NCBI RefSeq assembly: GCF_014490485.1
Contig: NZ_JACTVA010000010.1
Span: 1 to 64,000 of the forward strand
From: Teichococcus aerophilus
Lineage (GTDB): Bacteria; Pseudomonadota; Alphaproteobacteria; Acetobacterales; Acetobacteraceae
DNA length: 64,000 bases
Direction of reading: 5' to 3'
The translations under genes were made by a program, and so were the position numbers. The first letter of the stretch is position 1, and each line of letters starts with the position of its first letter. Shown in pieces: positions 1,147-63,936 of the stretch. The notes under the pieces were generated by a model that saw nothing but the letters and a program-made list of their open reading frames with translations, was not told the origin of the DNA and did not search any database.

Positions 1147-1196
1147 GGCCGGGGAAGGAATTCCCCGGCCCCATCTTCTTTTTTCAAATCTGGCGT
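1147..1196 (+). terminator. Dispersed hairpin element, copy A
   Basis: Perfect 10-bp stem (1147-1156 with 1161-1170), GGAA loop, then CCATCTTCTTTTTTC. It sits 71 bp after the stop of the 443-1075 gene on the same strand. It belongs to the eight-copy family described in the findings. Confidence 0.8.
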
Positions 1197-1203
1197 GGAG
1201 CCG

Positions 1204-1303
1204 GCGTGATGGCTTGGGGCGGAATCCCCGAGAGCTGAAGCACGCGGTCCCCCAAAGGCGTCGAGCAGGATGCGTGACCGAATGCGAACGCAGCAGGCTC
1301 GGG
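1204..1303 (+). repeat. R2 repeat (two-hairpin ~100-nt element), copy 1
   Basis: Begins GCGTGATGGC and ends in a long hairpin whose arms are 1262-1275 and 1288-1301. Related copies read on the minus strand at 24840-24936, 33850-33953 and 33954-34020. It lies directly behind element A and before the 3' end of the convergent polyprenyl synthase gene. Confidence 0.6.
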
Positions 1304-1333
1304 CTCACACCATCAGCGCAATACCTGCGGCCC

Positions 1334-2365
1334 TCAGTGCGCCCGGGCGATGCAGAACTCCACCACGCCCACCAACGCCCGCTTCTCCGCATTGTCCGGG
1401 AAGCCGTCCAGCGCCGCGATGGCCTTGTCGCCATACATGCGGGCCCGGCCGATCGTATCGGTGAATGCCTGGTGCTTCTGCATCAGCGCCAGCGCATGCG
1501 GCAGGTCAGCTTCTTCCTGCTGCTTCTCTTCCAGCACGCGGCGCCAGAACACCTTCTCGGCCTCGTCGCCGCGCTGGAACGCCAGCAGCACCGGCAGCGT
1601 GATCTTCCCCTCGCGGAAATCGTCACCCACCGTCTTGCCCAACTTCTCCTGCTGCGCGGAATAATCCAGCGCGTCGTCCACCAGCTGGAAGGCGATGCCC
1701 AGGTTGCGGCCATAGGCGTCCAACGCCTCGGCCTCCGCCACCGGGCGGTCGGCCACCACGGCACCCACGCGCGTCGCCGCCGCGAACAGCGCCGCCGTCT
1801 TGCCCTCGATCACGTCGAGATACTGTTCCTCGGTCGAGGACGTGTCGTTCTGGATCACCAGCTGCAGCACCTCGCCCTCGGCAATGGTGGCGCTGGCGCC
1901 GCACAGGATACGCAGCACCTCCAGCGATCCGTCCTCGACCATCAGCTCGAAGCTGCGGGCGAACAGGAAATCGCCGACCAGCACGCTGGCCTGGTTGCCG
2001 AACACCGCATTGGCGCTGGCCCGGCCGCGCCGCAGGTCGCTCTCATCCACCACATCGTCATGCAGCAGCGTGGCGGTGTGGATGAACTCCACGCACGCCG
2101 CCAGCCGCACATGCCGGTCGCCGCGATAGCCGCACATCCGCGCGGCGGCCAGCGTCAGCAACGGCCGCAACCGCTTGCCACCGGCCGCGATCAGATGTGC
2201 CGCCAGCTGCGGAATCAGCGCCACCGGGCTTTGCATCCGCTCGACGATCTGGCGATTGCAGGCCTCCAGATCCTCGCGCACCAACCCCACCAGGGCGGTG
2301 AGCGCATCTTCCCCGTTCGGGGCGGAAGCCTGGTCGGCGCGGGTCTGTACGGCGGGGGAGCTCAC
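1334..2365 (-). CDS. Long-chain (octa-/decaprenyl) diphosphate synthase
   Basis: A class I trans-prenyltransferase of 343 residues that elongates farnesyl/geranylgeranyl diphosphate with isopentenyl diphosphate to make the ubiquinone side chain. The two Mg-binding aspartate motifs are DDVVD (103-107) and DDALD (230-234). GGKRLRP (62-68) binds the diphosphate. Small residues precede the first motif, as in long-chain enzymes; Acetobacteraceae usually make Q-10, so decaprenyl is the likelier product. The GTG at 2365 was chosen because AAGAGG lies just upstream. The frame stays open to 2509 only through an artefactual Met-rich stretch made by a 12-bp tandem repeat. Divergent from the methyltransferase gene at 2527. 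Confidence 0.92.
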   Translation of the reverse strand: MSSPAVQTRADQASAPNGEDALTALVGLVREDLEACNRQIVERMQSPVALIPQLAAHLIAAGGKRLRPLLTLAAARMCGYRGDRHVRLAACVEFIHTATLLHDDVVDESDLRRGRASANAVFGNQASVLVGDFLFARSFELMVEDGSLEVLRILCGASATIAEGEVLQLVIQNDTSSTEEQYLDVIEGKTAALFAAATRVGAVVADRPVAEAEALDAYGRNLGIAFQLVDDALDYSAQQEKLGKTVGDDFREGKITLPVLLAFQRGDEAEKVFWRRVLEEKQQEEADLPHALALMQKHQAFTDTIGRARMYGDKAIAALDGFPDNAEKRALVGVVEFCIARAH

Positions 2366-2478
2366 GCGGGGATTGACCTCTTGCTGGCGCGCGCACCATA
2401 CCGGCCGGGCCCCGGCCCAGCAAGCCGACCGCCCCAATCCCGCCCGGCCCTTTCGCACCCGGCCCTGGACCATCCCCC

Positions 2479-2512
2479 AGGCCATCCCCAAGGCCATCCC
2501 CAAGGCCATCCA
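2479..2512. repeat. Short tandem repeat, 12-bp unit
   Basis: Unit AGGCCATCCCCA is present twice, plus a third partial copy, in the divergent promoter region between the polyprenyl synthase and methyltransferase genes. It ends at the AAGGAG ribosome-binding site of the methyltransferase gene. Confidence 0.85.
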
Positions 2513-2526
2513 AGGAGTAGCCCGGC

Positions 2527-3297
2527 ATGCCCCCGCTCCCGGACGCCACGGGCGACACGACCGAGGACACGCTGCTGGGCGGCCGCGTCCGCCTGCGCCA
2601 ACCCGTGCAAGGCCTGCGCGCCGGGCTGGATGCCGTCCTCCTCGCCGCCAGCATCCCCGCCCGCCCGGGCCAGACGGTGCTGGAAGCAGGCTGCGGCACC
2701 GGCGCCGTCTTCCTCTGCCTGCTGGCCCGCGTACCGGACCTGCACATCCTGGCCGTGGAGCGGGAACCGGAACTGGCCGAGCTCGCCCGCCACAACGCCG
2801 CCGCCAACAACGTGGCGGACCGCGTCACCATCCTGACCGGGGACATCACCGACCCCGCCCTGCTGCAGGAGAGGCGGGTCCACCACGCCTGCGCCAACCC
2901 GCCCTACTGGCCCGGCGGTACCCGCCCGCCCACCCGCCTGCGCGCCGCCGCCACGCATGAAGGCCCGCCGCATCTGGGCCACGGCCCGGCACTGGAACTG
3001 TGGGCCGCCGCCCTGGCCGCCCCGCTGGCCCACAAGGGCAGCCTCACCTTCGTGCTGCCCGCCGGCCGCCTCACCGAAGCCGCCCTGGCCCTGCATGCCG
3101 CCCGCTGCGGTGGCCTGGCCCTGCTGCCCTGCTGGCCACGCGCCGGCCAGCCCGCCCGCCGCATGCTGGTGCAGGCGCGCAAGCACAGCCGCCAGCCGGA
3201 CCACCTGCACCCCGGCCTCGCCTTGCATGACGACGCGGGCTGGAGCCCGCAGGCCAACGCCATCCTCCGCGACGCCGCCGCCCTACCGTTGCGCTGA
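2527..3297 (+). CDS. TrmN6-like SAM-dependent methyltransferase (tRNA1(Val) A37 N6 family)
   Basis: A 256-residue Rossmann methyltransferase. Motif I VLEAGCGTGA (51-60) binds S-adenosylmethionine, and NPPY (124-127) is the motif of amino-methyltransferases acting on adenine or glutamine. The N-terminal GGRVRLRQPVQGLRAGLDAV matches the characteristic start of the YfiC/TrmN6 family, where the enzyme methylates A37 of tRNA1(Val). The substrate is inferred from the family. ATG at 2527 follows AAGGAG. About 320 bp without a gene follow it. Confidence 0.82.
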   Translation: MPPLPDATGDTTEDTLLGGRVRLRQPVQGLRAGLDAVLLAASIPARPGQTVLEAGCGTGAVFLCLLARVPDLHILAVEREPELAELARHNAAANNVADRVTILTGDITDPALLQERRVHHACANPPYWPGGTRPPTRLRAAATHEGPPHLGHGPALELWAAALAAPLAHKGSLTFVLPAGRLTEAALALHAARCGGLALLPCWPRAGQPARRMLVQARKHSRQPDHLHPGLALHDDAGWSPQANAILRDAAALPLR

Positions 3298-3618
3298 CCG
3301 CGGCGCCTCGCCGGCCCGGCCCGCACCGCACCCGGGCACCCCATCCCGAACGGACGGCCCGCCGCGCATCCGCCCGGCGGCCGGGACCGCATCGAAATTC
3401 CCCAGCGCAGCCCAGGCCTTTCGCCTGCAAGAAGCTGAGCACCGATCCCCGCATTCCGGTACAACCTCCGGCTGCGGCCCGCCTCCGGTCTCCCGCGCTG
3501 CCCCGCGCCAGGCCGCGCACCGCCTCCACGCGGCACGGCTTGCCATTTGCCCTGCCCCACCGCCTGGCTTAGGACTGAACCCCCGTCCACAAGAAGACGC
3601 ACAGGCCCCCTGAACGAC
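3298..3618. other. Intergenic stretch without a gene
   Basis: 321 bp, GC-rich, no convincing ORF. It must hold the promoter of the glycosyltransferase-epimerase operon; no clear -35/-10 pair could be fixed by eye. Confidence 0.6.
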
Positions 3619-5874: not shown

Positions 5875-5876
5875 TC

Positions 5877-6893: not shown

Positions 6894-6908
6894 ACCCGCC
6901 CCACCGTC

Positions 6909-10480: not shown

Positions 10481-10533
10481 CAGGCCACCACCGGCATCCG
10501 CCGCCCCAACCCCACCAGGCCCGCAACGCAAGA

Positions 10534-17859: not shown

Positions 17860-18765
17860 ATGGATCTCCGCCACCTCCGCTACTTCGTCGCCGTCGCCGA
17901 GGAGCTCAGCTTCACCCGCGCCGCCCGCCGCCTCGGCCTCAACCAGGCCCCGCTCAGCCAGCAAGTGCAGCAACTGGAACGGGAAGTCGGCGCGCCGCTG
18001 TTCCAGCGCCTCCCCCGCGGCGTCGCCCTCACCGAGGCCGGCCAGCGGATGCTGGAAGACGCGAAGGACATCCTGGCCCGCACCCGCCAGGCCGTGCTCA
18101 ACGCCCGCCGCGCCGCCAGCGGCGAGCTCGGCACGCTGCGCATCGGCTTCACCGCCTCCGCCTCCTTCAACCCCTTCGTCACCGCCAGCATCCGGGACTA
18201 CCGCGAAGCCTTCCCGGACGTCCGGGTGGAGCTGATGGAAGCCAACACCGTCCAGCTGCTGGAACGCTTCCAGTCCCGCCAGCTCGACGCCGCCTTCATC
18301 CGCCCCGCCCCCGGTGAGGCCGGCCACCTCCCCTGCCGCCTGCTGCAGCGGGAAGACATGCTCGTCGCCCTCCCTGCCGGCCACCCCCTGGCGGAACGCC
18401 GCCTCATCCCCCTCACCGCTTTGCGGGACGAGAGCTTCATCCTCTACCCCCGCCGCAACGGCCGCGCCCTCTACGACGCCATCATCGACGCGTGCGAGGC
18501 CGCCGGCTTCAGCCCCCGCGTGGCGCAGGAAGCCCCGCAAATGGCCTCCACCGTCACCCTCATCGCCAGCGGCATCGGCATCTCCGTCGTCCCCGCCTCC
18601 ATGGGCCAGCTCCTCGCCCAGGGCGTCACCTACCGCCGCCTGCGCGGCCCCGCCCCCTTCGCCGAACTCAGCCTGGTCCACCAGACCGAGACCGCCCAGG
18701 AAGTCACCACCGCCTTCACCCAACTGGTCCTGGACCGCGCCGAGCGCGAAGGCCTCCTGCCGTGA
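17860..18765 (+). CDS. LysR-family regulator of the CoA-transferase operon
   Basis: 301 residues. The classic LTTR start MDLRHLRYFVAVAEELSFTRAARRLGLNQAPLSQQVQQLE forms the winged HTH, and the inducer-binding domain spans ~90-295 (CbeA/BenM-like subgroup: GFTASASFNPFV, LPAGHPLAERRLIPL). The ATG at 17860 directly follows the inverted-repeat operator. Divergent arrangement with the 17749-10588 operon makes it the likely activator, with a pathway carboxylate or its CoA-derived intermediate as co-inducer (inference). Followed by a terminator-like dispersed element. Confidence 0.93.
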   Translation: MDLRHLRYFVAVAEELSFTRAARRLGLNQAPLSQQVQQLEREVGAPLFQRLPRGVALTEAGQRMLEDAKDILARTRQAVLNARRAASGELGTLRIGFTASASFNPFVTASIRDYREAFPDVRVELMEANTVQLLERFQSRQLDAAFIRPAPGEAGHLPCRLLQREDMLVALPAGHPLAERRLIPLTALRDESFILYPRRNGRALYDAIIDACEAAGFSPRVAQEAPQMASTVTLIASGIGISVVPASMGQLLAQGVTYRRLRGPAPFAELSLVHQTETAQEVTTAFTQLVLDRAEREGLLP

Positions 18766-18779
18766 GGGCGTGGAGAAAA

Positions 18780-18828
18780 GCTGGGGAAGGAATTCCCCAG
18801 CCCCCATCTTCTTCCTACGAGTCTTCAG
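18780..18828 (+). terminator. Dispersed hairpin element, copy B
   Basis: 9-bp stem (18780-18788 with 18793-18801), GGAA loop, then CCCCATCTTCTTCC and a GAGTCTT trailer. It starts 15 bp after the LysR stop. Confidence 0.75.
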
Positions 18829-19019
18829 GTTGTTCTCGTGGAGCGCACGGTCTTTTCAAACCATCGCTGCGCGTCATCTCAGGACGCCCGGGCAACTTGG
18901 GCGTGCGCGACACGCCCCGTCGTCTGGCCGCTACTCACGCCGTCCGCTGCGCCCACCTCAGCCGGCCACGCCCCGGAAGCCCACCCGGATGGCCAGGCAA
19001 TCCGTAGGCCCGGGCCCCG

Positions 19020-19065
19020 AAGACCAGAAAGGAGATGGGCGCCAGGGGAACTCCTTCCCCTGGCG
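19020..19065 (-). terminator. Dispersed hairpin element, copy B' (reverse)
   Basis: 11-bp stem (19040-19050 with 19055-19065). Read on the minus strand the loop is GGAG, followed by CCCATCTCCTTTCTGG. It starts 36 bp after the M28 gene stop on that strand. Confidence 0.7.
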
Positions 19066-19100
19066 TTTCTCCACCCTCGCCTACAGCGAACGGCACCGCA

Positions 19101-20732
19101 TCACAGCGCCGCCATCGCCTGCCGCACCGCATGCGCCACCCGGTTCCCGGCCCGCCGGGCGGAGACGGTCAACAGATGCACCGCCTCGCTGCCCTCTTCC
19201 GCCCGCGCCAGTTCCCGCAGCGGCTCCAGCACCGGCCAGGCCGGCTGCGGCAGCGCCGGGTCGTGGCTGAAGCGGTCGCCCTGGGTGTAGTCCAGCGGCA
19301 CCAAGGCGCGGGACACCCGCATCGACGCCGCGTCCGCCAGCACCGCCCCGTCCAGCCGGTCCCGCAACGCCTCCACCTCGGCCAGCAGCGCATCCAGCGG
19401 CAGGGCGGGGCTGCGGTAGCGCTGCAACTCGCCCAGCAGCGCCGTGGCCGTCGCCGCGTGGTCCAGCGGCAAGGCGGCATCGGTCAGCAGCCGCCAGATG
19501 GCGTGGGCGTAAACCCGCGTGTCCCGCGCCAGGAAGTCGGGGTCGATCTTGTCCAGCAGGTCCTGCGGCGTGTGCCACCACCAGCCCAGCGGGTTGCGCA
19601 TCGCCACCGGTCCCGGCGGCTGGTGGCTCAACGTGCTGAACAGGCTCGGCAGCCCGATCCCCCAGAAGGAGGCATCGCCATTCCGGCCATGCCGCTTGCC
19701 CTCATGCGCCACGCCCAGCTCGTCCCGCAGCACCGCCCCTGCAAACCCGGCCAGCGCCCCATCGCTCGGCGCCTCGCCTAGCACCGTGGCGCCCGCGCCG
19801 CCGGTGGAATCCACATTCACATGCACCGCGCAGCGCTGCTCCAGCTCCGCCCAATGCGTGTCCGCATACCAGGCCGAGCTCGCATACCGCCCCTGCGAAT
19901 GGCCGGACCAGAAGCAGAACCGCAGCCCGCGCTTCCACGCGTCGCGCCGCGCCGCCGCCAGCCGCGCCACCTCCATCATCGTGGCGTTGGCGGCGCCATT
20001 ATCCATCACGCCCTCATACCAGGTGTCGTGATGCCCGCTGAACAGGATGAACGGCGCATCCTCCTCCGGCGCCGGCAGCTCAGCCACCAGCAGCGGGATC
20101 GGCCGCCAGCCGGTATCCACCTCGGCGTGCAGCACCACCGCCGGCAACTCCCCCGCCGCCAGCCGCGCCCGCAGCGCCATCCCATCGGCGTGGCATACCG
20201 TCACCGCCACCGCCGCCGGCAGGTTCCCCGCCGTCTCGGCGGAAGGGCTGCCCCACACGGGCGAGATGCACATCTCGTGGATATGCTCGTGCGGGCTCAC
20301 ATGCAGCGTCCCCGCCGCCCCCACCCGCGCGGCGCGCGTCGCCACCGCCGGGCTGGCAATGCCATCCACCAGCAGGATCGCCCCACGCAGGTCGCGCCCG
20401 CCGGCAAAGGCGGCCTCGTCGCCCGCCCCCATATCCACCACCGGCCCGGTCACGCCGCCAGCCGGCGAGGCCAGCGACATCGCGTGCGTGATCGCTCGCA
20501 ACCGCTGCCCGTCCACCGTCACCTGCGCCGCGCCCGGCAGGCTGACATACGCTTCGTGCATCAGCATCGTGGTGCGGTAACCATAGGCATCCATCCTCGC
20601 CTGGATGAAGCGGATGCTCTCCAACTCCTCCGCCGTACCCGCCAGCTTCCGCCAGCGCGCCAGCGCGGTAAGATTCTCCATCAGCGCCCCGGCATCGACC
20701 CCGGCGGCGAACGCCTTCGCATCCCCCGCCAT
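19101..20732 (-). CDS. M28-family peptidase-like protein lacking the catalytic Glu pair
   Basis: 543 residues. N-terminal half has a PA-like insert (~90-210). The M28 zinc-hydrolase core begins at ~225: FSGHHDTWYEGVMDNGAANA gives His234, Asp236 and Asp244. VNVDST (~306-311) and WWWHTPQD give later ligands. Where active M28 peptidases have Glu-Glu, this protein reads WSGHSQGRYASSAW (275-288), so the general-base Glu is absent. It may be a non-peptidase hydrolase or inactive binder. The ATG at 20732 overlaps the upstream ketopantoate reductase stop by one base (TGATG), so the two are translationally coupled. Confidence 0.82.
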   Translation of the reverse strand: MAGDAKAFAAGVDAGALMENLTALARWRKLAGTAEELESIRFIQARMDAYGYRTTMLMHEAYVSLPGAAQVTVDGQRLRAITHAMSLASPAGGVTGPVVDMGAGDEAAFAGGRDLRGAILLVDGIASPAVATRAARVGAAGTLHVSPHEHIHEMCISPVWGSPSAETAGNLPAAVAVTVCHADGMALRARLAAGELPAVVLHAEVDTGWRPIPLLVAELPAPEEDAPFILFSGHHDTWYEGVMDNGAANATMMEVARLAAARRDAWKRGLRFCFWSGHSQGRYASSAWYADTHWAELEQRCAVHVNVDSTGGAGATVLGEAPSDGALAGFAGAVLRDELGVAHEGKRHGRNGDASFWGIGLPSLFSTLSHQPPGPVAMRNPLGWWWHTPQDLLDKIDPDFLARDTRVYAHAIWRLLTDAALPLDHAATATALLGELQRYRSPALPLDALLAEVEALRDRLDGAVLADAASMRVSRALVPLDYTQGDRFSHDPALPQPAWPVLEPLRELARAEEGSEAVHLLTVSARRAGNRVAHAVRQAMAAL

Positions 20733-23379: not shown

Positions 23380-24417
23380 ATGAGCAAGACCCCGCCGTCA
23401 CCGGCCCATCCGCCCGCCCCCGGCCGCCGCCAGTTGCTGGGCCTCACGGCGGGCGCCCTCGCCCTGCCGGCCCTGGTCATCCCCGGCCGCGCCCAGGCGC
23501 AGCGGGATGCCGCCTGGCCCAACCGCCCCATCCGCATGGTCGTCCCCTTCGCCACCGGCGGCGGCACGGACGTCACCATGCGCCTGCTCGCCCCCAAGCT
23601 CGGCGAGATCCTCGGCCAGTCCGTGGTCATCGAGAACCGCCCCGGCGCCGGCAGCACCGTCGGCACCGACTCCGTCGCCAAGTCGGCACCGGATGGCTAC
23701 ACCTTCGTCCTCGCCACCCTCTCCTCCACCGGCATCGCCAAGGGCCTCTACAGCAACCTGCCCTATGACCCGGTGAAGGACCTCACCGCCGTCGCCCCCA
23801 CCGTCTTCATCCCCATCAGCTTCGCCATCACCCAGCGCGGCTGGAACGTGAAGACCTACCCGGAACTGGTGGAAACCCTGCTGGCCAAGCCCAACGGCTA
23901 CTCCTACGGCAGCAGCGGCTCAGGCTCCACCGGCCACATCGCCAGCGCCAACTTCCTGCGCCAGGTCGGCGCCAAGGCCGAACACGTCCCCTATCGCGGC
24001 GCCGGGCAGAGCTTCACCGCCCTCATCGCCGGCGAGACGCAGTTCACCCACGACATCCCCTCCCTGCTCAAGCCCTTCCACGAATCCGGCCAGGCCCGCG
24101 TCCTGTTCGTCAACGGCGACAAACGCTCGCCTCTGCTGCCGGACGTCCCCGCGCAGACCGAGCTCGGCATCCCCGACTACAAATCCTATTCCTGGTACGG
24201 CATCTTCGGCCCCGCCAACCTCCCGCCCGAAATCACCGCCAAGATGGCCGCCGCCATTGAAGCCACGCTGGCCGACCCCGCCATGGAAGCCAAGCTCAAC
24301 GAACTCGGCACCCCCGCCATGCGCGGCTGGAGCCCGGCCCGCTTCGCCCAGTACGTGAAGGAAGAAATCGACACCTGGGTGCCCCTCGTCCACGCCTCCG
24401 GCGCCAGCGCCGGCTGA
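23380..24417 (+). CDS. Bug/TctC-family periplasmic solute-binding protein
   Basis: 345 residues. Tat-like leader (GRRQLLGLTAGALALPAL) ending near RAQAQ, then the full Bug signature: VPFATGGGTDVTMRL, ENRPGAGSTVGTD, PDGYTFVLATL, LPYDPVKDLTAV, VPYRGAGQSFTALIAGE. Carboxylate binding in the periplasm is the family role; no TctAB partner is nearby. It lies 44 bp after the SDR in the same operon, so the ligand is probably the substrate of the SDR/ketopantoate reductase-like enzymes. Followed by dispersed terminator-like element C. Confidence 0.93.
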   Translation: MSKTPPSPAHPPAPGRRQLLGLTAGALALPALVIPGRAQAQRDAAWPNRPIRMVVPFATGGGTDVTMRLLAPKLGEILGQSVVIENRPGAGSTVGTDSVAKSAPDGYTFVLATLSSTGIAKGLYSNLPYDPVKDLTAVAPTVFIPISFAITQRGWNVKTYPELVETLLAKPNGYSYGSSGSGSTGHIASANFLRQVGAKAEHVPYRGAGQSFTALIAGETQFTHDIPSLLKPFHESGQARVLFVNGDKRSPLLPDVPAQTELGIPDYKSYSWYGIFGPANLPPEITAKMAAAIEATLADPAMEAKLNELGTPAMRGWSPARFAQYVKEEIDTWVPLVHASGASAG

Positions 24418-24439
24418 GCAGAGACCGGGGAGAGGAAAG

Positions 24440-24488
24440 GCTGGGGAAGGAATTCCCCAGACCCCATCTTTCGTTTTCAAGTTTGGCG
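24440..24488 (+). terminator. Dispersed hairpin element, copy C
   Basis: 8-bp stem (24441-24448 with 24453-24460), GGAA loop, tail CCCCATCTTTCGTTTTCAAG. It starts 23 bp after the TctC stop. Confidence 0.75.
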
Positions 24489-24754
24489 TCCTGGCGGGGA
24501 GGCCGGCGCATCGCGCGATGGCGCTGCGGATGCACGGCCGCGGGCGAATACCGCAGCTGCACCCAGCGTTTTATCCGATCGCGTTTCTCTCGCTCGTGGC
24601 TGGTTCAGCCTGCGGCGCGTCCGCTCCCGCACCAGCGCAACGCGGCACCCTTCGCCCGGGCGAAGCCAATACAAAATCCCAAGCCAAACACGCCTGGCAT
24701 CCAAACCAACAGCGCGCCAGCACCGCCGTGCCCGAACACCCTCACCACCGCCCG

Positions 24755-24812
24755 CCCAAAAACTCGAAAAAAGAAAAGAAGGGGCCCGGGGAATTCCTTC
24801 CCCGGCCTTCAT
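24755..24812 (-). terminator. Dispersed hairpin element, copy D (reverse)
   Basis: Stem 24786-24793 with 24798-24805. On the minus strand the tail reads CCCCTTCTTTTCTTTTTTCG followed by AGTTTTTGGGCG. Faces copy C. Confidence 0.75.
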
Positions 24813-24839
24813 CCTCGCCAAAGCCAGGAAGCCCCCCGA

Positions 24840-24937: not shown

Positions 24938-25639
24938 CTAACCCTTCTCCCGCTCCCGCAAGATCCGCAGCGCCACCTCCGCCGCGTGGCGCACATGCCG
25001 CCGGCAGGCGTCCCAGGCGGCGGCGGGGTCGCGCGCCTCCACCGCTTCCACCACCTGGCGCAGTTCCGCCACTGTCTGCGGCAGCCGCCCCGGTTCGGCC
25101 AGGGATGTCGCGCGCAGTTGCATGTTGCGGTTGATGGTGGCGTCGAACATGCGGGCCACCATCGGGTTCCGGCAGCCGCGCATCAGCACGTCGTAGAAGT
25201 CGCGCTTCAGGGCCAGCAGCGCCTCGCGGTCCGCCGCCGGCTGCAACTGCGCCAACTGCTCGTACACGCGCCGCAACTCCGCCCGCTCCTCATCCGTGGC
25301 GCGCACGGCGAACCCCTCGCCCGCCAGCGCCTCCAGCACGCCGCGTACCTCATAGGTCTGCTCCGCCTCAGTGGAGGACAGGAAGGCGACGAACGGCCCG
25401 CGGTTAGGGATGGTCGTCACCAGCCCCTCGGCTTCCAGCAGCCGCACCGCCTCGCGCACCACACTGCGGCTGGCGCCGAACAACTCGCACAACATCCGGT
25501 CCGGCAGGTGCTGCCCGGGGCCGAAGCGGCCGGACATGATGGCGTTGCGCAGCCCGTCTTCCACCAGCTTGCGCATGGGCTTCGGCACCACCCGCAGCGC
25601 CGCGTCATCCATCATTCGCAGTCCGCCCGTCTCTGTCAT
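24938..25639 (-). CDS. GntR-family regulator, FCD subgroup
   Basis: 233 residues. HTH region KLVEDGLRNAIMSGRFGPGQ and FGASRSVVREAVRLLEAEGL (~25-85), then FCD helices (YEVRGVLEALAGEGFAV, RDFYDVLMRGCRNPMVARMF, HVRHAAEVALRIL). The start is uncertain: ATG at 25639 (GGGGTGGA upstream) is given, and ATG at 25615 is the main alternative. Monocistronic by position, and no divergent target gene is evident; the P1 peptidase gene ending at 25712 is upstream on the same strand. Confidence 0.88.
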   Translation of the reverse strand: MTETGGLRMMDDAALRVVPKPMRKLVEDGLRNAIMSGRFGPGQHLPDRMLCELFGASRSVVREAVRLLEAEGLVTTIPNRGPFVAFLSSTEAEQTYEVRGVLEALAGEGFAVRATDEERAELRRVYEQLAQLQPAADREALLALKRDFYDVLMRGCRNPMVARMFDATINRNMQLRATSLAEPGRLPQTVAELRQVVEAVEARDPAAAWDACRRHVRHAAEVALRILREREKG

Positions 25640-45624: not shown

Positions 45625-45715
45625 GGACGGGTGGCCGAGCGGTCGAAGGCGCACGCCTGGAAAGTGTGTATACCTCAAAAGGGTATCGTGGGTTCGAATC
45701 CCACCTCGTCCGCCA
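45625..45715 (+). tRNA. tRNA-Ser (anticodon GGA)
   Basis: 91 nt including encoded CCA (45713-45715). The acceptor stem GGACGGG pairs with CTCGTCC (one G-T), the D-arm is GGCCGAGCGGTC, the anticodon loop CTGGAAA gives GGA, a long class II variable arm (GTGTATACC...GGGTATC) follows, then the T-loop GGTTCGAATCC. Reads UCC/UCU. Confidence 0.96.
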
Positions 45716-54942: not shown

Positions 54943-56793
54943 ATGTTGAACCTGCCCCGCCTGCCCCGCTCGATCGCGACCGTCTGCCTCAGCGGCCATT
55001 TGCTGGACAAGCTGGAAGCGGCCGCCGCCGCCGGCTTCGACGGCGTGGAGATTTTTGAGAACGACCTGCTGACCTATGAGGGCTCGCCGGCGGAGATCCG
55101 GCGGCTGGCGGAGGATCTTGGCCTCGCCATCACCATCTTCCAGCCGTTCCGCGACTTCGAGGCGATGCCGGAGCCGCAGCGGGCGCGGAACATGGACCGG
55201 GCGGAGCGGAAGTTCGACGTGATGCAGGCGCTGGGCACCGACCTGGTGCTGGTGTGCAGCAACACGCAGGAGGTGGCGATCGACGACGACGCGCGCGCCG
55301 CCGCCGACCTGGCGGAGATGGCGGAGCGCGCGGCGAAGCGCGGCTTGCGCGTGGGCTACGAAGCGCTGGCCTGGGGGCGGAATGTCAGCCGCTGGAAGCA
55401 TGCCTGGAAGATCGTGCAGATGGCCGGGCATGATTCGCTCGGGCTGATCGTGGACAGCTTCCACACCCTGTCGCTGGGCGACGAGCATGCCGGTATCGCC
55501 GAGCTGCCGGGCGAGAAGATCTTCTTCGTGCAGTTGGCGGATGCGCCGCGGCTGAGCATGGACGTGCTGTCCTGGAGCCGGCATTTCCGTAACTATCCTG
55601 GCCAGGGCGACCTGGATGTGGGCGGCTTCCTCGGCTCGGTGATGAAGTCGGGGTATCGGGGACCGATCTCGCTGGAGGTGTTCAACGACGATTTCCGCGA
55701 GGCACCGGCGCGGTTGAATGCGCGGGATGCGCTGCGTTCGTTGATCCTGGCGGAGTCGCAGGCGGGCGTGGCGGAGTTGCCGGCGCTGGCGAAGTGCGAG
55801 GGCGTGGCCTTCCTGGAATTCGCCGTGGACGTGGCGGCACGCACGCGGCTGGGCGGGTTCCTGGAGACGCTGGGCTTCCGGCTGTGCGGGCGGCACCGGT
55901 CCAAGGACGTGCTGCTGTACCGGCAGGGCGGCATCAACCTGGTGCTGAACGCGGAGCAGGACAGCGCGGCGGCGGAGCATTTCCAACTGCACGGACCCTC
56001 CGTCTGCGCCATGGCGCTGAAGGTGGACGATGCCGCGCGGGCGCTGGCGCGCGCCCGGGCGTTGCAGTGCTCCGAATGGCAGGAGCATCGCGGCGTGGAT
56101 GAAAAGGCGCTGCCCGGCATCCGCGCGACCGATGGCACGCTGATCCTGTTGATCGGGCCGGATGGGGACGGCGACAGCAGCCTGTCCTGGCAGAACGACT
56201 TCCATATGCTGGAGGACGCGCCGGAGGGACCGCTGGCGCAGATCGACCACGTGGCGCAGGCGTTGCCGACGGGCAGCATGGACAGCTTCGTGCTGTTCTG
56301 GCGCGCCGTGTTCGGGCTGGAGCCGCAGCAGGCGTTCGAGATCGCGGACCCGCAGGGCCTGATCCGCAGCCGGGCGATGATCAGTCCGGATGGGGCGCTG
56401 AGGCTGCCGCTGAACATTTCCGAAAGCCGCAAGACCTCCACCGGGCGCTTCGTCACCGCCTTCGCGGGCGCGGGCGTGCATCACGTGGCGTTCGATACGC
56501 AGGACATCTTTGCCGCGGTGCAGGATTTCCGCGCGAAGGGGCTGCGGACGTTGCAGATTCCGCCGAACTACTACGACGATCTGGGCGCGCGCTGGGGGCT
56601 GGAGGACGACATGCTGGCGCGGCTGCGCGAGCATGACGTGCTTTATGACCGCGATGCGGGCGGGGAGCTGTTCCAGTTCTACTCGCATGCCTTCGACAGC
56701 CGCTTCTTCTTCGAGGTGATCGAGCGGCGGGGGGCACAGGGCTTTGGCGCGGCGAATGCATCCGTGCGGATGGCGGCGCAGGCGCGGGGGTAA
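54943..56793 (+). CDS. quiC: 3-dehydroshikimate dehydratase, two-domain QuiC type
   Basis: 616 residues. N-terminal TIM barrel (1-280) of the sugar-phosphate-isomerase type with metal ligands Glu140 (GYEALAW), Asp171 (LIVDSFHTL), Gln197 (FFVQLADAP) and Glu245 (ISLEVFND); the spacing is the same as in characterised QuiC. The C-terminal ~300 residues are HPPD-like VOC modules (QIDHVAQALPTGSMDSFVLFW, GVHHVAFDTQDIF, GELFQFYSHAF). It dehydrates 3-dehydroshikimate to protocatechuate. ATG with GAGGACG upstream. Protocatechuate dioxygenase (PcaGH) and PcaB are not in the window. Confidence 0.94.
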   Translation: MLNLPRLPRSIATVCLSGHLLDKLEAAAAAGFDGVEIFENDLLTYEGSPAEIRRLAEDLGLAITIFQPFRDFEAMPEPQRARNMDRAERKFDVMQALGTDLVLVCSNTQEVAIDDDARAAADLAEMAERAAKRGLRVGYEALAWGRNVSRWKHAWKIVQMAGHDSLGLIVDSFHTLSLGDEHAGIAELPGEKIFFVQLADAPRLSMDVLSWSRHFRNYPGQGDLDVGGFLGSVMKSGYRGPISLEVFNDDFREAPARLNARDALRSLILAESQAGVAELPALAKCEGVAFLEFAVDVAARTRLGGFLETLGFRLCGRHRSKDVLLYRQGGINLVLNAEQDSAAAEHFQLHGPSVCAMALKVDDAARALARARALQCSEWQEHRGVDEKALPGIRATDGTLILLIGPDGDGDSSLSWQNDFHMLEDAPEGPLAQIDHVAQALPTGSMDSFVLFWRAVFGLEPQQAFEIADPQGLIRSRAMISPDGALRLPLNISESRKTSTGRFVTAFAGAGVHHVAFDTQDIFAAVQDFRAKGLRTLQIPPNYYDDLGARWGLEDDMLARLREHDVLYDRDAGGELFQFYSHAFDSRFFFEVIERRGAQGFGAANASVRMAAQARG

Positions 56794-56813
56794 TCTCTAC
56801 GTCGATCGTGGTT

Positions 56814-56850
56814 AGGAGGGCCGGGGAAGGAATTCCCCGGCCCTCCTTGT
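56814..56850 (+). terminator. Dispersed hairpin element, copy E
   Basis: 15-bp stem (56814-56828 with 56833-56847), GGAA loop; starts 20 bp after the quiC stop. The T-rich tail is degenerate in this copy. Confidence 0.75.
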
Positions 56851-56993
56851 ATTGGCCGCGCGCGGTGGTGGGCGATTGATTGTGGCTTGAGCTTTGCAAA
56901 AATCTTGGCGGCCAGAGGGGTGGCGTCGCGCCTGTGCCGCTGCCGCGCCCACGCTGAGAAGTCCGGCTTATCGAATTCGCAGCTGGAGTTATT

Positions 56994-57014
56994 TGAGAGT
57001 TACTCGCAGTTGCA
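56994..57014 (+). promoter_or_regulatory. Fur-like box before the TonB receptor
   Basis: TGAGAGTTACTCGCAGTTGCA closely resembles the extended Fur box TGAGAATNATTCTCAATTGCA. It lies 49 bp before the receptor ATG at 57064. Confidence 0.65.
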
Positions 57015-57063
57015 CTAAGGAGCCGCTTTACCCTGCGGGGCGCGGGACCGATGGGTGGCTGAG

Positions 57064-59223: not shown

Positions 59224-59229
59224 GGGTGT

Positions 59230-59259
59230 GGCCCGCCGGTGCCAGGGCGCCGGCGGGCC
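59230..59259. terminator. Bidirectional hairpin between convergent genes
   Basis: GGCCCGCCGG (59230-59239) pairs with CCGGCGGGCC (59250-59259); between the receptor stop and the NTF2-like stop. Confidence 0.65.
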
Positions 59260-59271
59260 GCTTGCGTCGCA

Positions 59272-59670: not shown

Positions 59671-59672
59671 GC

Positions 59673-60569
59673 TCAGCCCCAGCTCATCTCGCCCTTGGCC
59701 ACCTTGGCGCCGATATCCAGCGCCACTTCCATGCCGAGGCCGGGGAAGCGGGCCTTCATCGCGGCGATCAGCGCGGCGGAGTTGGCGGCCTTGGGCACCT
59801 CCTCCTCGAAGGCGAGCAGGTAGGCCCGGGTGTGCTGGACGGCGGAGATGTCGGTCGGAGCGGCCGCGGTCATGTGCCCCGGCACGACGACGGCCGGCTT
59901 GCGGGCGATAATGGCATCGAGCGTGGCGACCCAGGCGGCACGGGCTTCTGCGCTCTGCGTATCCGCCGTCCAGACATGCACGCCGGCGAAGACCAGCACG
60001 CCGCCGAACACCGCCTGCAGGGACGGCGACCAGAGGTAGCGGCGGTTCGGCAGGCCGGTGGCGTCGACGATCTCGATGGCCTGGCCATCGACCGACAGGG
60101 CCGGGCCGTCGAACGCATCGGGGAAGACGATGTCGGCCACGGCGCGGGGGCCGTTCTCCTTCAACTGCGGGCCCCAGGCGCCGATCTTCTTCTCCACGCT
60201 GGCGCGGATGGCGGCGATGGTGGCGGAGGCCGCGATGACGCGGGCCTGCGGGAAGGCCTCATGGACCGGGCGCAGGCCAAAATAGTAGTCGGGGTCGCTC
60301 TGGCTGACATAGATGGTGGTGAGGCGCTTGCCGGTCGCCTTGATCGCCTCCGCCAGGGCCTTGCCGTCGGAGAGGGTGAAGCCGGCGTCGATCACCACCG
60401 CCTCGGTGGCGCCGGAGACGAGCACGGGCGCGCGGAAGAAGCCGTTGGGCCCGGCGGGGAAGTGCCGCCAGGTGAGGCCGGCGGCCACGGCGCGGCCGAT
60501 GCCGGCGGGGGCCAGCGCGGCGGCGGTGGCGGTCAGGGCGGTCTTCACGGCGGTTCTCCTGGTGAACAT
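59673..60569 (-). CDS. MBL-fold protein with a substituted metal motif
   Basis: 298 residues. Tat-like leader FTRRTAVKTALTATAAALAPAG. Beta-lactamase-like body (GATEAVVIDAGFTLSDGKAL, RLTTIYVSQSDPDYYFGLRP, VVPGHMTAAAPTD). The usual HxHxDH is replaced by SQSDPDYYFG (89-98), leaving only the Asp, while a His in VVPGHM is kept. This looks like a conserved divergent subfamily rather than decay, because the rest is intact. Operon with the NTF2-like gene; divergent from the LysR gene at 60744. Confidence 0.88.
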   Translation of the reverse strand: MFTRRTAVKTALTATAAALAPAGIGRAVAAGLTWRHFPAGPNGFFRAPVLVSGATEAVVIDAGFTLSDGKALAEAIKATGKRLTTIYVSQSDPDYYFGLRPVHEAFPQARVIAASATIAAIRASVEKKIGAWGPQLKENGPRAVADIVFPDAFDGPALSVDGQAIEIVDATGLPNRRYLWSPSLQAVFGGVLVFAGVHVWTADTQSAEARAAWVATLDAIIARKPAVVVPGHMTAAAPTDISAVQHTRAYLLAFEEEVPKAANSAALIAAMKARFPGLGMEVALDIGAKVAKGEMSWG

Positions 60570-60743
60570 GGGGGCTCTCCTTCGGCAAGCGGGGTGCGTG
60601 GCGGTGCTGGTTTGGGCGGGACTGCCGCCCGCCGTTCGACCGGGAGGATGCCACGCTGGTGTCGTACGAATTAGTCGAATGAATCGGACAGAATGTCTGC
60701 CAGTGGTTGACAATCCAGCGCGGCGCGGCGTCCGCTGGCCGGC

Positions 60744-61637
60744 ATGAACCTGAACCGGCTGGTCTATTTCGCGGCGGTGGTGGACACCGGCTCCTTCACC
60801 CGGGCGGCGGAGCGGCTGCGGGTAACCAAGGCCGTGGTAAGCCAGCAGGTGGCGGAGCTGGAGAGTGAGCTGGGCACGACGCTGCTGACACGCACCACCC
60901 GGCGCGTGCAGCCAACCGAGGCCGGACGGCTGTTTCACGCCCGCTGTGCCTCCATCCTGCGCGAGGCCGAGGACGCGTTCGGCGAGTTGGCGCAGGTGGC
61001 GGCGGAGCCCACGGGCACGCTGCGCGTCACGGCGCCGTATGATTACGGCATCGCCTCCGTCGTTCCGGTAGCGACCGAGTTTGCCGCCCGTTACCCGGCC
61101 TGCCGGCTGGAGCTGATGCTGGCGGACCGGACGGTGGACCTGGCCTCGGCCGGGATCGACATGGCGATCCGCGTCGGCTGGCTGGAGGATTCCAGCCTGC
61201 AGGCACGGCGCATCGGCGGCTTCCGGCAGGTGCTGGTGGGCAGCCCGGCGATGGCGGCGCGGATCGCCGCCGTGCAGGAGCCGGAGGAGCTGGCGGCGCT
61301 GCCCTTCGTCGCCAACATGGCGTTGCGGGAGCCGCTGCTCTGGCCGTTCACCCGTGCCGGGACGGAGAAGCGCCTGGTGCGGATGCGCTCCGCCCTGGCG
61401 ATCGACACCACGCCGGCGGTGCTGGCGGCGGTGCAGGGCGGTGGCGGGCTCTCCGTGCTGCCGGATTTCCTGGTTGGGACGTTGCTGGCGGCGGGACAGC
61501 TGGTCGAGGTGCTGCCGGCGTGGCATTTGCCGTCGGGCGGCATCCACGCGGTGTATCCGGCGGCACGCTTCCGCCCGGCCAAGGTCACCACCTTCCTGGC
61601 CATGCTGGTTGCGGCGGAGGCCGCCCGGGGGCGGTGA
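60744..61637 (+). CDS. LysR-family regulator
   Basis: 297 residues. HTH MNLNRLVYFAAVVDTGSFTRAAERLRVTKAVVSQQVAELE; effector domain of the CrgA/AaeR-like group (GTLRVTAPYDYGIASVVPVA, GIDMAIRVGWLEDSSL). It is divergent from the MBL-NTF2 operon across 174 bp that contain AT-rich TCGTACGAATTAGTCGAATG, so it is their likely regulator. Confidence 0.93.
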   Translation: MNLNRLVYFAAVVDTGSFTRAAERLRVTKAVVSQQVAELESELGTTLLTRTTRRVQPTEAGRLFHARCASILREAEDAFGELAQVAAEPTGTLRVTAPYDYGIASVVPVATEFAARYPACRLELMLADRTVDLASAGIDMAIRVGWLEDSSLQARRIGGFRQVLVGSPAMAARIAAVQEPEELAALPFVANMALREPLLWPFTRAGTEKRLVRMRSALAIDTTPAVLAAVQGGGGLSVLPDFLVGTLLAAGQLVEVLPAWHLPSGGIHAVYPAARFRPAKVTTFLAMLVAAEAARGR

Positions 61638-61653
61638 CGGCGCCTGGCACGGC

Positions 61654-61669
61654 TTCACGCCATCGGGTG
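61654..61669 (-). repeat. 16-nt partial repeat matching 7728-7743
   Basis: TTCACGCCATCGGGTG, the exact reverse complement of 7728-7743; in the gap between the LysR stop and the binding-protein stop. Confidence 0.5.
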
Positions 61670-61675
61670 GTTGCT

Positions 61676-62836
61676 CTAGCGGGAGGGGGCGTCGTCCGCC
61701 GGGTCCAGGCTGGTCCAGTAGGTGCCTTCGAAGGGCACGGCGGCGAAGCGGCGGTTGATCTCGGCCAGGGTGGCGGCGGGGTCGAGGTCCGCGAACAAAT
61801 CGGGGCGGACCCAGCGGGCCAGAACTTCCGCCCCCACCACGTTGATCGCGGTGCCGGAGAAGTAGTTCCACAGCCCGTGGGCGCGGCCGGCACGCACGGC
61901 ATCCAGGTTGGATAGCGCCGTCTCCTGCGTCACAGCCTGCAGGCTGCGGTGGGCGGTGGCGGCGTCCACGCCGGTGCCCAGCAGCAGGCCGGTATGGTCG
62001 CCCGGGCGGTACAGGCCAGTGCCGATGAACAGGTCGGGCGGGTCGCTCAGCACCTGTTCCAGCGAGATCTGGCCGCCGGGGCGGTTGCCCAGCACGGGCG
62101 TGGCGGCGTTGCGGCCGCCGACCAGGGCGAGGAATTCGCCGCTTCCGCCGGTGCCGGCGGCCCAGCAGCAGGGCCAGCGGCCGGGGAAGGCGTTCAGCAG
62201 CACGCGCGGCGCGGCGCCTTGCCCGGCCGGGGACGGGTTGGCGGCGACGCGGCTGCGGATGCGCTCCATCCGTTCCTCGTGGAAGCGGATGAAGGCGTCG
62301 GCTTGTTCGCGGCGGTCCAGCGCCTCGCCCAGCAGGCGGATGGTGGGGGCGGTGTTGGTCAGCGGCTTCTGGAACACGTCCACGAACAGGACCGGCACGC
62401 CGGATTGCGCGAACTGTTCCAGCAGCGGCCTGGATTCCGCCGAGTTGGCCTGCCAGGCGCTGAGGATGACCAGGTCCGGCGCCAGGGACAGGCCGCGCTC
62501 GATGGAGAAGGTCTGGCCGACATTGGTGGTCAGCACCGGCACGGCGTCGATGGCGGGAAAGCGGCGCTGGAAGGCGACGTAGCTCTGTGGGTCCGCCCGC
62601 CGCATGTCGCCCCCCATGCCGACCAGCAGGGAGACGGGGTCCGGGTGGATGAGGGACAGGGTGAGGAGCTGCATGCTCTCCCCCAACAGCAGGGTGGCGG
62701 GCTTGTGGGGCAGCGTGACCTGCCGGCCCAGCACGTCGGTGACGGTGCGGGGCCACTGCGCCCAGGCGGGGGTGGCCAGCAGCAGCAGGGGCGCCGCCAG
62801 CAGCGGGGCCAGCAGGGCCCGGATGCGCTTGAACAT
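61676..62836 (-). CDS. Periplasmic iron-chelate/cobalamin-type ABC binding protein
   Basis: 386 residues, helical-backbone (FepB/BtuF-like) binding protein. Signal peptide RALLAPLLAAPLLLLATPAWAQ; mature domain starts WPRTVTDVLGRQVTLPHKPATLLLG, then SLAPDLVILSAWQANSA and WNYFSGTAINVVGAEVLARWVRPDLF. Delivers a ferric chelate or corrinoid to an ABC importer; no permease or ATPase gene is adjacent, only the TonB receptor 2.4 kb away. ATG 62836 with GGAGG. Confidence 0.88.
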   Translation of the reverse strand: MFKRIRALLAPLLAAPLLLLATPAWAQWPRTVTDVLGRQVTLPHKPATLLLGESMQLLTLSLIHPDPVSLLVGMGGDMRRADPQSYVAFQRRFPAIDAVPVLTTNVGQTFSIERGLSLAPDLVILSAWQANSAESRPLLEQFAQSGVPVLFVDVFQKPLTNTAPTIRLLGEALDRREQADAFIRFHEERMERIRSRVAANPSPAGQGAAPRVLLNAFPGRWPCCWAAGTGGSGEFLALVGGRNAATPVLGNRPGGQISLEQVLSDPPDLFIGTGLYRPGDHTGLLLGTGVDAATAHRSLQAVTQETALSNLDAVRAGRAHGLWNYFSGTAINVVGAEVLARWVRPDLFADLDPAATLAEINRRFAAVPFEGTYWTSLDPADDAPSR

Positions 62837-63031
62837 GACGGTGGCCTCCGCAGCCGCATGAGAGGGCTTCGGCATAGCGGCGTGCCCGGGGCCAGGACAA
62901 GGCGCGGGGTGGGTTGCCGGCCGCCATGCTGGCGGCCTCGTGTTGGCTTGCCGCGCGGGCGGCGGGCCGGGCCACTGGTGGTGGGGCCTGGGCGGGGCCA
63001 TCTGCTGTGCCGTTGTCCCGCCGGAGGTCCG

Positions 63032-63709
63032 ATGCACGCCGTTTCCACCAGCCTGTTGCTGCCGCTGCGGCAGATCACCGAGCCTGGCTTCCGCTGGCCG
63101 CTGCTGAAGGGCGTGCTGGGCGCCCTGCTGGCCTTTGGCGGGCTGATCTGGCTGGCGGATTGGGGCGTGTCCTCCCTGGTCGGCGGCGAGGGGTGGCTGG
63201 CTACCCTCGCCGGGGTGTTGGGCGGGGTGCTGGTGCTGGTTTCCGCCGTGTGGCTGTTCGTGCCGGTGATGCTGGGCATCGCCAGCCTGTTCCTGGACGA
63301 GGTGGCCGAGGCGGTGGAGCGGCGATACTACCCTGCCCTGCCGCCCGCCGTGGGGTCCGGCCTGCATTCGCAGGTCTGGGCCGGCGTGGTGCTGGGCCTG
63401 AAGATGCTGGCGCTGACGATCGTGGTGATGCTGCTGACATTGTTCGCGCCGCCGCTGGGGGCCGTGTGCTTCTGGGTGCTGGCTGCCATCTCGCTCGGCA
63501 ACGGGTTGTTCGAGGGGGTGGCGCAGCGCCGCATGTCCGTGCCCGAGGCCAGCGCGCTGCGGCGGCGGCTGCGCTGGCCGGTCTGGGCCGTGGGCGGCGT
63601 GCTGGCGGCGGCGGCGCTGGTGCCGGTGCTGAACCTGGCGGTGCCGGTATGGGGCACGGCGGCGATGACGCACCTGATGCAGCGGGTGAAGCAAGGGGCG
63701 CCGGGCTGA
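63032..63709 (+). CDS. EI24/CysZ-like membrane protein
   Basis: 225 residues with at least four hydrophobic segments (GVLGALLAFGGLIWLADWGV, LAGVLGGVLVLVSAVWLFVP, GLKMLALTIVVMLLTLFAPP, WAVGGVLAAAALVPVLNLAV). FLDEVAEAVERRYYP after the second helix and LNLAVPVWGTAAMTHL near the end are typical of the EI24 domain family (CysZ sulfate channels and relatives). Sulfate transport is not proven. GGAGG precedes the ATG. Confidence 0.86.
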   Translation: MHAVSTSLLLPLRQITEPGFRWPLLKGVLGALLAFGGLIWLADWGVSSLVGGEGWLATLAGVLGGVLVLVSAVWLFVPVMLGIASLFLDEVAEAVERRYYPALPPAVGSGLHSQVWAGVVLGLKMLALTIVVMLLTLFAPPLGAVCFWVLAAISLGNGLFEGVAQRRMSVPEASALRRRLRWPVWAVGGVLAAAALVPVLNLAVPVWGTAAMTHLMQRVKQGAPG

Positions 63710-63746
63710 CGGGCGGGCTTGCTTGGTGAGAAGGAAGGAAGGAAGG

Positions 63747-63796
63747 CCGGGGAAGGAGTTCCCCGGACCCCTTATTTTCTTCTTCGAGTTTTAGCG
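63747..63796 (+). terminator. Dispersed hairpin element, copy F
   Basis: Stem 63747-63754 with 63759-63766, GGAG loop, tail CCCCTTATTTTCTTCTTCG then AGTTTTAGCG; starts 37 bp after the EI24 gene stop. Confidence 0.75.
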
Positions 63797-63881
63797 GGCG
63801 GTGGACATGCCGAATGATGTGACAGCCGTCGCCGCCGGATTTTGGATTTATCCAGGGGCCAACTGGCAAACGTGAGGCATC

Positions 63882-63936
63882 ACGAAAAACTCGCAGAAAA
63901 AAGATGGGGTCCGGGGAATTCCTTCCCCGACCTTCC
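63882..63936 (-). terminator. Dispersed hairpin element, copy G (reverse)
   Basis: Stem around 63912-63918 and 63923-63929; on the minus strand the tail reads CCCCATCTTTTTTCTGCGAG then TTTTTCG. Faces copy F and follows the minus-strand gene that enters from the right edge. Confidence 0.75.

What the first reader, a model, noticed from the sequence alone, without database searches (positions are those of the whole stretch)
1147..63936. Eight-copy dispersed terminator-like element centred on GGGGAAGGAATTCCCC
Copies at 1147 (+), 18780 (+), 19065 (-), 24440 (+), 24812 (-), 56814 (+), 63747 (+) and 63936 (-) share the stem, GGAA/GGAG loop and, in seven of them, a tail close to CCCCATCTTCTTTTTTC; five of these also carry a trailing GAGTTTT/CAAATTTGG-like segment. 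Every copy lies just after a stop codon in the orientation of that gene. Ordinary terminators do not share loop and flank sequence, so this is a spreading or selected sequence family serving as terminator. Stem lengths vary (7-15 bp) with base-pair changes that keep pairing.
Basis: seen in the sequence. Interest (0 to 1): 0.7.

Follow-up and report, generated by a model that had tools for sequence, protein, structure and literature searches.

The report
Paired-terminator repeat spread through Roseomonas genomes
The repeated 'terminator' is mostly one end of a roughly 250-letter non-coding element that has been copied many times between genes in one group of bacteria, and its two inward-facing ends look like ready-made stop signals for transcription.

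Summary
In detail: eight near-identical hairpin copies lie after genes. The genome, from the Roseomonas/Pseudoroseomonas group, has 452 exact cores. The reading changes. In an 817-kb sample (14% of the genome, chosen from contigs with copies) a profile finds 172 ends; 132 form 66 inward-facing pairs, 32 of them 244-260 bp long. Interiors are often shared: 32 of 63 pairs carry one core, and 23 of the other 31 match the 257-nt model. So the hairpin is mainly the terminal inverted repeat of a MITE-like dispersed element. Copies are lineage-specific: absent from 12 of 12 relatives at bamB-der and 14 of 14 at the window's 1151 site, with species-specific bursts. They avoid genes and divergent gaps. 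Of predicted 3' hairpins with at least 8 T in 10, 64 of 67 belong to the family. No target duplication, Y1 transposase in this genome or uptake-sequence signal was found. Termination and mobility are inferred, not measured. Closest precedent: pneumococcal SPRITE. New variant of a known kind.

The parts
1141..1198 (+). Unpaired element end (hairpin, T-tract, CAAATCTGG tail) in the convergent gap between 443-1075(+) and polyprenyl synthetase 1334-2365(-); absent downstream of the orthologous gene in the 14 relatives examined
18772..19071 (.). Head-to-head pair (ends 18772-18829 + and 19020-19071 -) between LysR gene 17860-18765(+) and M28 peptidase 19101-20732(-); beyond the ends only 18830-18861 matches the element model; core profile gives no hit
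24432..24814 (.). Head-to-head pair (ends 24432-24490 + and 24755-24814 -) between TctC gene 23380-24417(+) and GntR gene 24938-25615(-); interior longer than usual, core profile gives no hit
56814..56852 (+). Truncated or decayed unpaired end: hairpin intact, T-tract tail absent; core starts 29 nt after 54943-56793(+)
63738..63939 (.). Short element: ends 63738-63797 + and 63882-63939 -, with 63812-63938 matching positions 127-255 of the 257-nt model (core profile gives no hit); between the EI24-domain ORF ending at 63709(+) and 63978-64880(-)
1151..1166 (+). Hairpin core GGGGAANGARTTCCCC, example copy (others start at 18783, 24443, 56823, 63749 on + and 19045, 24788, 63913 on -)

Best explanation
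The hairpin is usually the end module of a non-coding, MITE-like dispersed repeat of about 250 bp. Each end is about 55 bp: AAGG, a GC hairpin with an NGAA/NGAG loop, CCCC[A/T]TC, a T-tract and a CGAGTTT-like tail. The two ends are inverted relative to each other with T-tracts facing inward; between them lies a core with a palindrome. The element has been copied, largely separately in each lineage, into gaps downstream of genes. Shown here: the anatomy, the homology of interiors, lineage-specific presence at the sites that could be compared, species-specific bursts, and avoidance of genes and divergent gaps. Inferred: each end works as a Rho-independent terminator for transcription entering the element, so an insertion after a gene is harmless or useful and may be kept as that gene's terminator; copying is done by an unidentified trans-acting enzyme or by recombination between repeats; unpaired ends are remnants or recombinants.
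For: 172 end matches and none in the reversed control at E 0.01; 132 in 66 inward-facing pairs, 29 of them 247-257 bp long. Of 23 pairs with spacing 205-235 bp most interiors align end to end, many at 75-90% identity. 32 of 63 pairs carry the core and 23 of the 31 others match the 257-nt model over more than 150 nt. Occupancy: 43 of 94 convergent, 42 of 274 tandem, 4 of 87 divergent gaps; 3 of 170 merged ends overlap a called gene. bamB-der: element only in G000 (gap 364 nt); 12 of 12 relatives with the same neighbours have 71-130 nt without it. Of 100 G000 sites 6 could be compared: family absent in 18 of 19 site-relative comparisons. Window site 1151: absent in 14 of 14 relatives, 4 of them with both neighbours. 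Tree of 61 elements: 9 species changes against a mean of 25.1 (minimum 18) in 200 shuffles. Terminator features: T-tract in 123 of 130, median hairpin -18.4 kcal/mol; 64 of 67 strongest predicted 3' hairpins belong to the family; covariation. Longest ATG ORF inside 28 elements 36 aa.
Against: No target-site duplication (34 pairs; 63 pairs, mean longest shared flank word 5.21 against 5.18 in controls) and no transposase with matching ends: the only two + - spacings of 420-4500 bp in the sample held no called gene. End profiles reach more genera and genomes than the interior, so the end hairpin may be an older terminator that the element captured. Near flanks align poorly at several compared sites (66, 68, 69) and the bamB-der breakpoint is unclear. 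Some sites are shared between species: 3 of 8 comparisons with G000 and 11 of 56 among relatives, duplicates included. Within tandem pairs the hairpin core is intact at 22 of 26 sense and 16 of 26 antisense ends, but the T-tract is no richer at sense ends (7.4 against 7.9 T in 10), so selection for termination is at most weakly indicated. The mntH locus was uninformative. No transcript data.
Confidence: 0.77

Rival explanations
1. The hairpin is simply the group's ordinary intrinsic terminator, its sequence held by selection (loop, foot and T-tract all functional). Pairs are two terminators of convergent genes and the shared interior is a side effect of local recombination.
For: Model matches in 16 of 17 genus genomes and in 22 of 102 sampled genera of the family, with a similar foot in other genera; in E05 and P. 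ludipueritiae loci tight end pairs occur without a long match to the element model; exact-core copies have a same-strand gene upstream in 73 of 86, an opposite one in 10, 1 is inside a called gene and 2 are at block ends; sense ends keep the core more often (22 against 16 of 26).
Against: Interior sequence shared between unrelated loci; 28 of 66 pairs lie in tandem gaps and 2 in divergent gaps; unpaired ends in tandem gaps show no orientation preference, 10 to 11; orthologous gaps in relatives hold no copy, some an unrelated hairpin.
Confidence: 0.12
2. REP/REPIN (BIME-like) element mobilised by a RAYT tyrosine transposase: paired inverted hairpins at gene 3' ends.
For: Inverted hairpin pairs, high copy number, extragenic, modular ends.
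Against: No PF01797 match in the window's genome or in 16 of 17 genus genomes; one 36-position match (E 3.7e-4) in G159. Ends carry T-tracts and enclose a long shared interior.
Confidence: 0.05
3. DNA-uptake sequences arranged as inverted pairs and co-opted as terminators, as in Neisseria and Pasteurellaceae.
For: Hundreds of near-identical copies forming terminator-like hairpins; Kingsford et al. 2007 (PMC1852404, passages) describe that arrangement.
Against: Six ten-letter pieces of the core occur outside ends 0-3 times each in 817 kb against 0.6-1.6 expected; the largest count of the eleven pieces tested was 11 against 5.9 for AAGGCCGGGG. No excess of free single motifs comparable to uptake sequences.
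Confidence: 0.02
4. A structured regulatory or small RNA: the whole element is transcribed and processed or bound as RNA.
For: Both strands of a typed consensus fold into a long structure (-157 and -152 kcal/mol, no shuffle control); the core palindrome is strongly kept.
Against: Inverted ends fold well by construction; no Rfam match to the window copies; compared positions mostly differ between species; both ends would stop transcription entering.
Confidence: 0.04

Closest known systems
[quoted passage not shown]
   Same: Interspersed repeat resembling a Rho-independent terminator, enriched between convergent genes and near gene 3' ends, no IS with similar ends, no duplication established, co-option as terminators proposed (PMC3049150, passages)
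   Different: SPRITE is a single 18-bp duplex plus U-rich tract with AAAA/TTTT ends and 30 copies in the genome studied; here there are two inward-facing terminator-like ends, a shared interior, hundreds of copies, another phylum, and orthologous sites without the element
BOX elements (pneumococcus)
   Same: Modular intergenic repeat with terminal inverted repeats (PMC3049150, passages)
   Different: BOX is reported to cause target duplications; here none was found, and the ends carry T-tracts
REP/BIME/REPIN and CGTC REPs
   Same: High-copy extragenic palindromes that form dimers (PMC3733652, passages)
   Different: No RAYT in the genome; that paper reports CGTC repeats missing from Acetobacteraceae; hairpins here are followed by T-tracts
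Correia elements and other bacterial MITEs
   Same: Short, non-coding, terminal inverted repeats, dispersed (Correia as described in PMC3049150 passages)
   Different: No target duplication or parent IS found here; ends are terminator-like hairpins
USS/DUS terminator pairs
   Same: A repeated motif serves in many terminators (PMC1852404, passages)
   Different: No single-motif excess

Membership tests
MITE | Terminal inverted repeats, short, non-coding, high copy | tested here: met
   66 inward pairs, 32 of them 244-260 bp; longest ATG ORF 36 aa in 28 elements
MITE | Presence/absence differences at orthologous sites | tested here: met
   Between species only:
MITE | Target-site duplication | tested here: not met
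   Searches (34 pairs; 63 pairs): no excess of shared flank words
MITE | Autonomous IS with matching ends | tested here: inconclusive
   None in the 817-kb sample or phage records; two plasmid records of P. cervicalis with partial end matches only; the rest of the genome was not examined for this
Rho-independent terminator | GC hairpin followed by T-rich tract | tested here: met
   123 of 130 hairpins with at least 6 T in 10 nt
Rho-independent terminator | Location at gene 3' ends in sense orientation | tested here: inconclusive
   117 of 159 ends sense, but paired inward ends and a preference for convergent gaps produce this in part; unpaired ends in tandem gaps 10 sense, 11 antisense
Rho-independent terminator | Transcripts end in the T-tract | not testable with these tools
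   Needs Term-seq or reporters
REP/REPIN | RAYT (Y1) transposase in the genome | tested here: not met
REP/REPIN | GTAG or CGTC tag at the hairpin foot | not tested
   The alignments show GAAGG and CCCC[AT]TC around the hairpin, but no count was made
DNA uptake sequence | Large excess of single copies outside hairpins | tested here: not met
SPRITE | Sequence homology to SPRITE | not tested
   Only passages of the published description were seen

The most novel reading that the evidence does not exclude
A self-insulating mobile repeat, closed at both ends by its own terminators, has become the main source of intrinsic terminators in its host. In burst lineages of this bacterial group copying rebuilds where transcription stops, even cutting into gene pairs that are close neighbours or overlapping in relatives (bamB-der, and an ATGA-overlapping pair), while end hairpins are swapped between elements.
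Probability: 0.4. Interest if true: 0.75.

Novelty: new variant of a known kind. Interest (0 to 1): 0.56.

Why it matters
Where terminators come from is rarely traceable. Here sites without the element, unrelated terminator-like hairpins in the same gap of sister species, and fresh copies in one lineage can be compared directly, so terminator birth by insertion can be tested with Term-seq. If the ends work, and the 817-kb sample is representative, most strongly T-rich intrinsic terminators of a 5.7-Mb GC-rich genome come from one dispersed element. It would also give a marker for recent genome change in this group.

Tried and rejected
Tried without result: target-site duplications; Y1/RAYT transposase; an autonomous longer copy in the sample; plasmid and phage records (two P. 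cervicalis plasmids with partial end matches, no phage match); Rfam (only a tRNA in the window); the mntH locus (neighbours differ, uninformative; none of the relatives' gene copies had the family in 550 nt downstream).

Considered and rejected or weakened: free-standing terminators under selection (shared interiors, sites without a copy); uptake sequence; REPIN (no RAYT). An early reading that 63749 lies upstream of a minus-strand gene was wrong: my caller missed the EI24 gene. An earlier count said 7 comparable sites; the recount is 6.

Limits. Gene calls come from my own codon model, not a standard annotator, and contain errors. The 817 kb of G000 (14% of the genome) were chosen from contigs among the first 100 listed of 452 exact cores, so densities are high: 86 of 452 cores fall in 14% of the bases. 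G107 and G155 regions were chosen around copies. Hairpin counts at low T thresholds are noisy: at 6 T, scanning the reverse complement of the same 3' regions, which also holds family copies, still gives 75 genes against 129; no such control was run at 7 or 8 T. The genome search scored only a capped number of candidates per genome (150, 26, 17 or 40), so counts are lower bounds. Comparisons include reciprocal pairs and one locus held twice. The core profile came from other species' elements (13 seeds), so core-less counts for G000 are upper bounds. The long listing was cut in the output.
Full report
What was checked. The eight copies are real and far above chance: 11 matches at up to 3 mismatches against 0.80 expected, eight of them with at most one mismatch. 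They share stem and NGAA/NGAG loop, and seven of eight share the CCCC[AT]T foot and T-rich tail; 56823 lacks the tail. All eight follow a same-strand gene. Across 68 aligned copies the pair just outside the fixed core is C-G in 35, and G-C, U-A or A-U in 29; 4 are broken or gapped.

How many and where. The window's genome (G000, 5.66 Mb, 140 contigs) holds 226 + 226 exact GGGGAAGGARTTCCCC, with none for the reversed pattern. In a family sample of 150 genomes, own included, 6 had an exact match; the highest other count was 23, in the congener G107, and the congener G016 had none. A covariance model found matches in 16 of 17 genus genomes, 35 of 200 family genomes in 22 of 102 genera, and 51 of 299 genomes sampled from the order; every matching row is in the same family, though the list does not show whether other families were in the sample. 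That is an inference from lengths.

The turn in the story. I took stretches of the genome, 817 kb with the window. Copies come in inward-facing pairs: 39 pairs and 44 unpaired among 122 near-exact cores, spacing median 218 bp. A profile of the end finds 172 ends at E 0.01 or better and none in the reversed sequence; 132 lie in 66 pairs, 29 of them 247-257 bp long and the rest between 162 and 416. Interiors match each other: many pairwise alignments run the whole 250 bp at 75-90% identity, others are weaker or partial. A shared core with a palindrome (CGCCGGAGGTC..GACCTCCGGCG) lies in 32 of 63 pairs, and 23 of the remaining 31 still match the 257-nt model over more than 150 nt. The unit is therefore a dispersed non-coding element with terminal inverted repeats, each end a terminator-like hairpin facing inward. 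Scaling 172 ends by exact cores (86 of 452 in the sample) suggests about 900 ends genome-wide; this is an estimate.

Modularity. The interior query matched 10 of 17 genus genomes, own included. In the loci viewed from G156 (9), G163 (4), G157 (2) and one from G107 the same core is flanked by different hairpins, typically a GGGGTGACAGTGTCACCCC type on the left and a GGGGTGGAAAGTCCACCCC type on the right. In the G000 sample, with T the end described here and A and B those other hairpins, the architectures were: T-core-T 30; T-T without detected core 26; single T 33; T-T-T 5; B and A combinations 5; and seven single examples of others, including one A-core-T mixture.

Evidence of spread. At bamB-der the G000 gap is 364 nt with a whole element. 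Twelve of 12 relatives with the same neighbours have 71-130 nt and no match to the end, core, A or B profiles. Four more relatives lack bamB there: G161 and G153 carry a tight end pair beside another gene, G159 an A/B-type hairpin, G016 nothing. Of 100 sites in the sample, 6 had both flanks in fetched relatives; in 18 of 19 comparisons the family was absent, and one site was occupied in G153 as well. Near flanks align poorly at sites 66, 68 and 69. One site lies between genes that overlap as ATGA in G107 (the ATGA reading is mine). At the window's own 1151 site, 14 of 14 relatives with the polyprenyl synthetase gene lack it within 400 nt downstream; two of the 17 genus genomes had no match to the protein at the threshold. 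Four keep both neighbours, the second beginning 31-124 nt after the stop against 262 in G000, and three of these (G163, G155, G157) carry an unrelated hairpin with a short T run there, by eye. Starting from relatives' sites, 5 of 8 comparisons with G000 and 45 of 56 among relatives show absence (duplicates included); the others show presence. A tree of 61 whole elements needs 9 species changes against 25.1 in shuffles (minimum 18 of 200), with one large G000 cluster, one large G107 cluster and an older mixed set. That means largely separate bursts.

Placement and terminator character. Ends lie in 43 of 94 convergent, 42 of 274 tandem and 4 of 87 divergent gaps; 3 of 170 merged ends overlap a called gene. 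For the 117 sense ends the median distance from the stop is 23 nt. Of 159 ends, 117 have a same-strand gene upstream and 42 do not. Unpaired ends in tandem gaps are 10 sense, 11 antisense, so placement alone does not show selection for termination. In tandem pairs the core is intact at 22 of 26 sense and 16 of 26 antisense ends, while T content is 7.4 against 7.9 in 10: at most a weak hint. The hairpin is stable (median -18.4 kcal/mol) and 123 of 130 have at least 6 T in a 10-nt stretch, against 37 of 310 random intergenic pieces. In the CCCCTTC form GAAGG can pair with CCTTC, putting the T-tract directly at the stem base; the CCCCATC form folds without that. Of genes with a predicted 3' hairpin having at least 6, 7 and 8 T, 90 of 129, 81 of 94 and 64 of 67 have a family hairpin in sense. 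At 6 T the reverse-complement control, which also holds family copies, still gives 75 genes. In regions chosen around copies the numbers are 49 of 70, 46 of 54 and 38 of 39 for G107, and 9 of 10, 8 of 8 and 4 of 4 for G155. In the der regions of eleven other relatives, not chosen for copies, they are 5 of 18, 5 of 7 and 1 of 2. Dominance is therefore shown for burst-lineage samples only.

What was not found. No target duplication; no Y1 transposase in G000 and one short match in 17 genus genomes; no excess of single core pieces, so no uptake sequence; no Rfam family for the window copies. In the held literature, searches listed no paper whose title or abstract start describes such an element in this group; one search listed 8 of 19 papers. 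I saw passages of four papers and no whole text. RepRanger (PMC12306157) reports 1,369 REPs in Lichenicola cladoniae, an Acetobacteraceae member, and its main text does not contain the word Roseomonas; I did not test whether those REPs are this family.

Interpretation. The best reading is a MITE-like element that carries its own terminators at both ends. Dispersal and anatomy are shown; termination and the copying mechanism are inferred. It works like SPRITE in being a terminator-like interspersed repeat, but it is not shown to be related to it. It meets the structural tests of a MITE and fails the target-duplication test, so I do not file it as a proven member.

Noticed in passing
L291-L300 (G000; e.g. 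C51:55917-55938 and C51:56202-56221): Two perfect palindromes, ATCAAACCTATAGGTTTGAT and GCGTAAACGTATACGTTTACGC, replace the hairpin foot in some ends, each tied to its own hairpin type. The shared centre occurs 18 times in the genome; ten of the 18 were viewed and all ten lie in element ends.
   Followed up: partly
G000 contig C1 (284,896 bp): Only 2 of 452 exact cores lie on this contig, where about 23 would be expected by length (inference); it may be a plasmid or recently acquired.
   Followed up: no
L194-L208, L213: Other species use the same core with different end hairpins and further GC palindromes outside them; a repertoire of modular intergenic repeats seems to exist in this genus.
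   Followed up: partly
G016 (same genus): The only one of 17 genus genomes with no covariance-model match.
   Followed up: no
G000 C49:9829-9991: An end pair separates two same-strand genes that overlap as ATGA in G107.
   Followed up: partly
Element flanks, G000 sample: The last 7 nt outside the left end are purine-rich (0.76-0.90 against 0.49 in controls), fading outward, with the mirror image on the right and no other conservation.
   Followed up: partly
L041, L267, L268 (G107): Runs of 20 N inside or beside element ends in this assembly, as if the repeats broke it.
   Followed up: no
window 45625-45715: tRNA-Ser (GGA), the only RNA gene found in the window.
   Followed up: no
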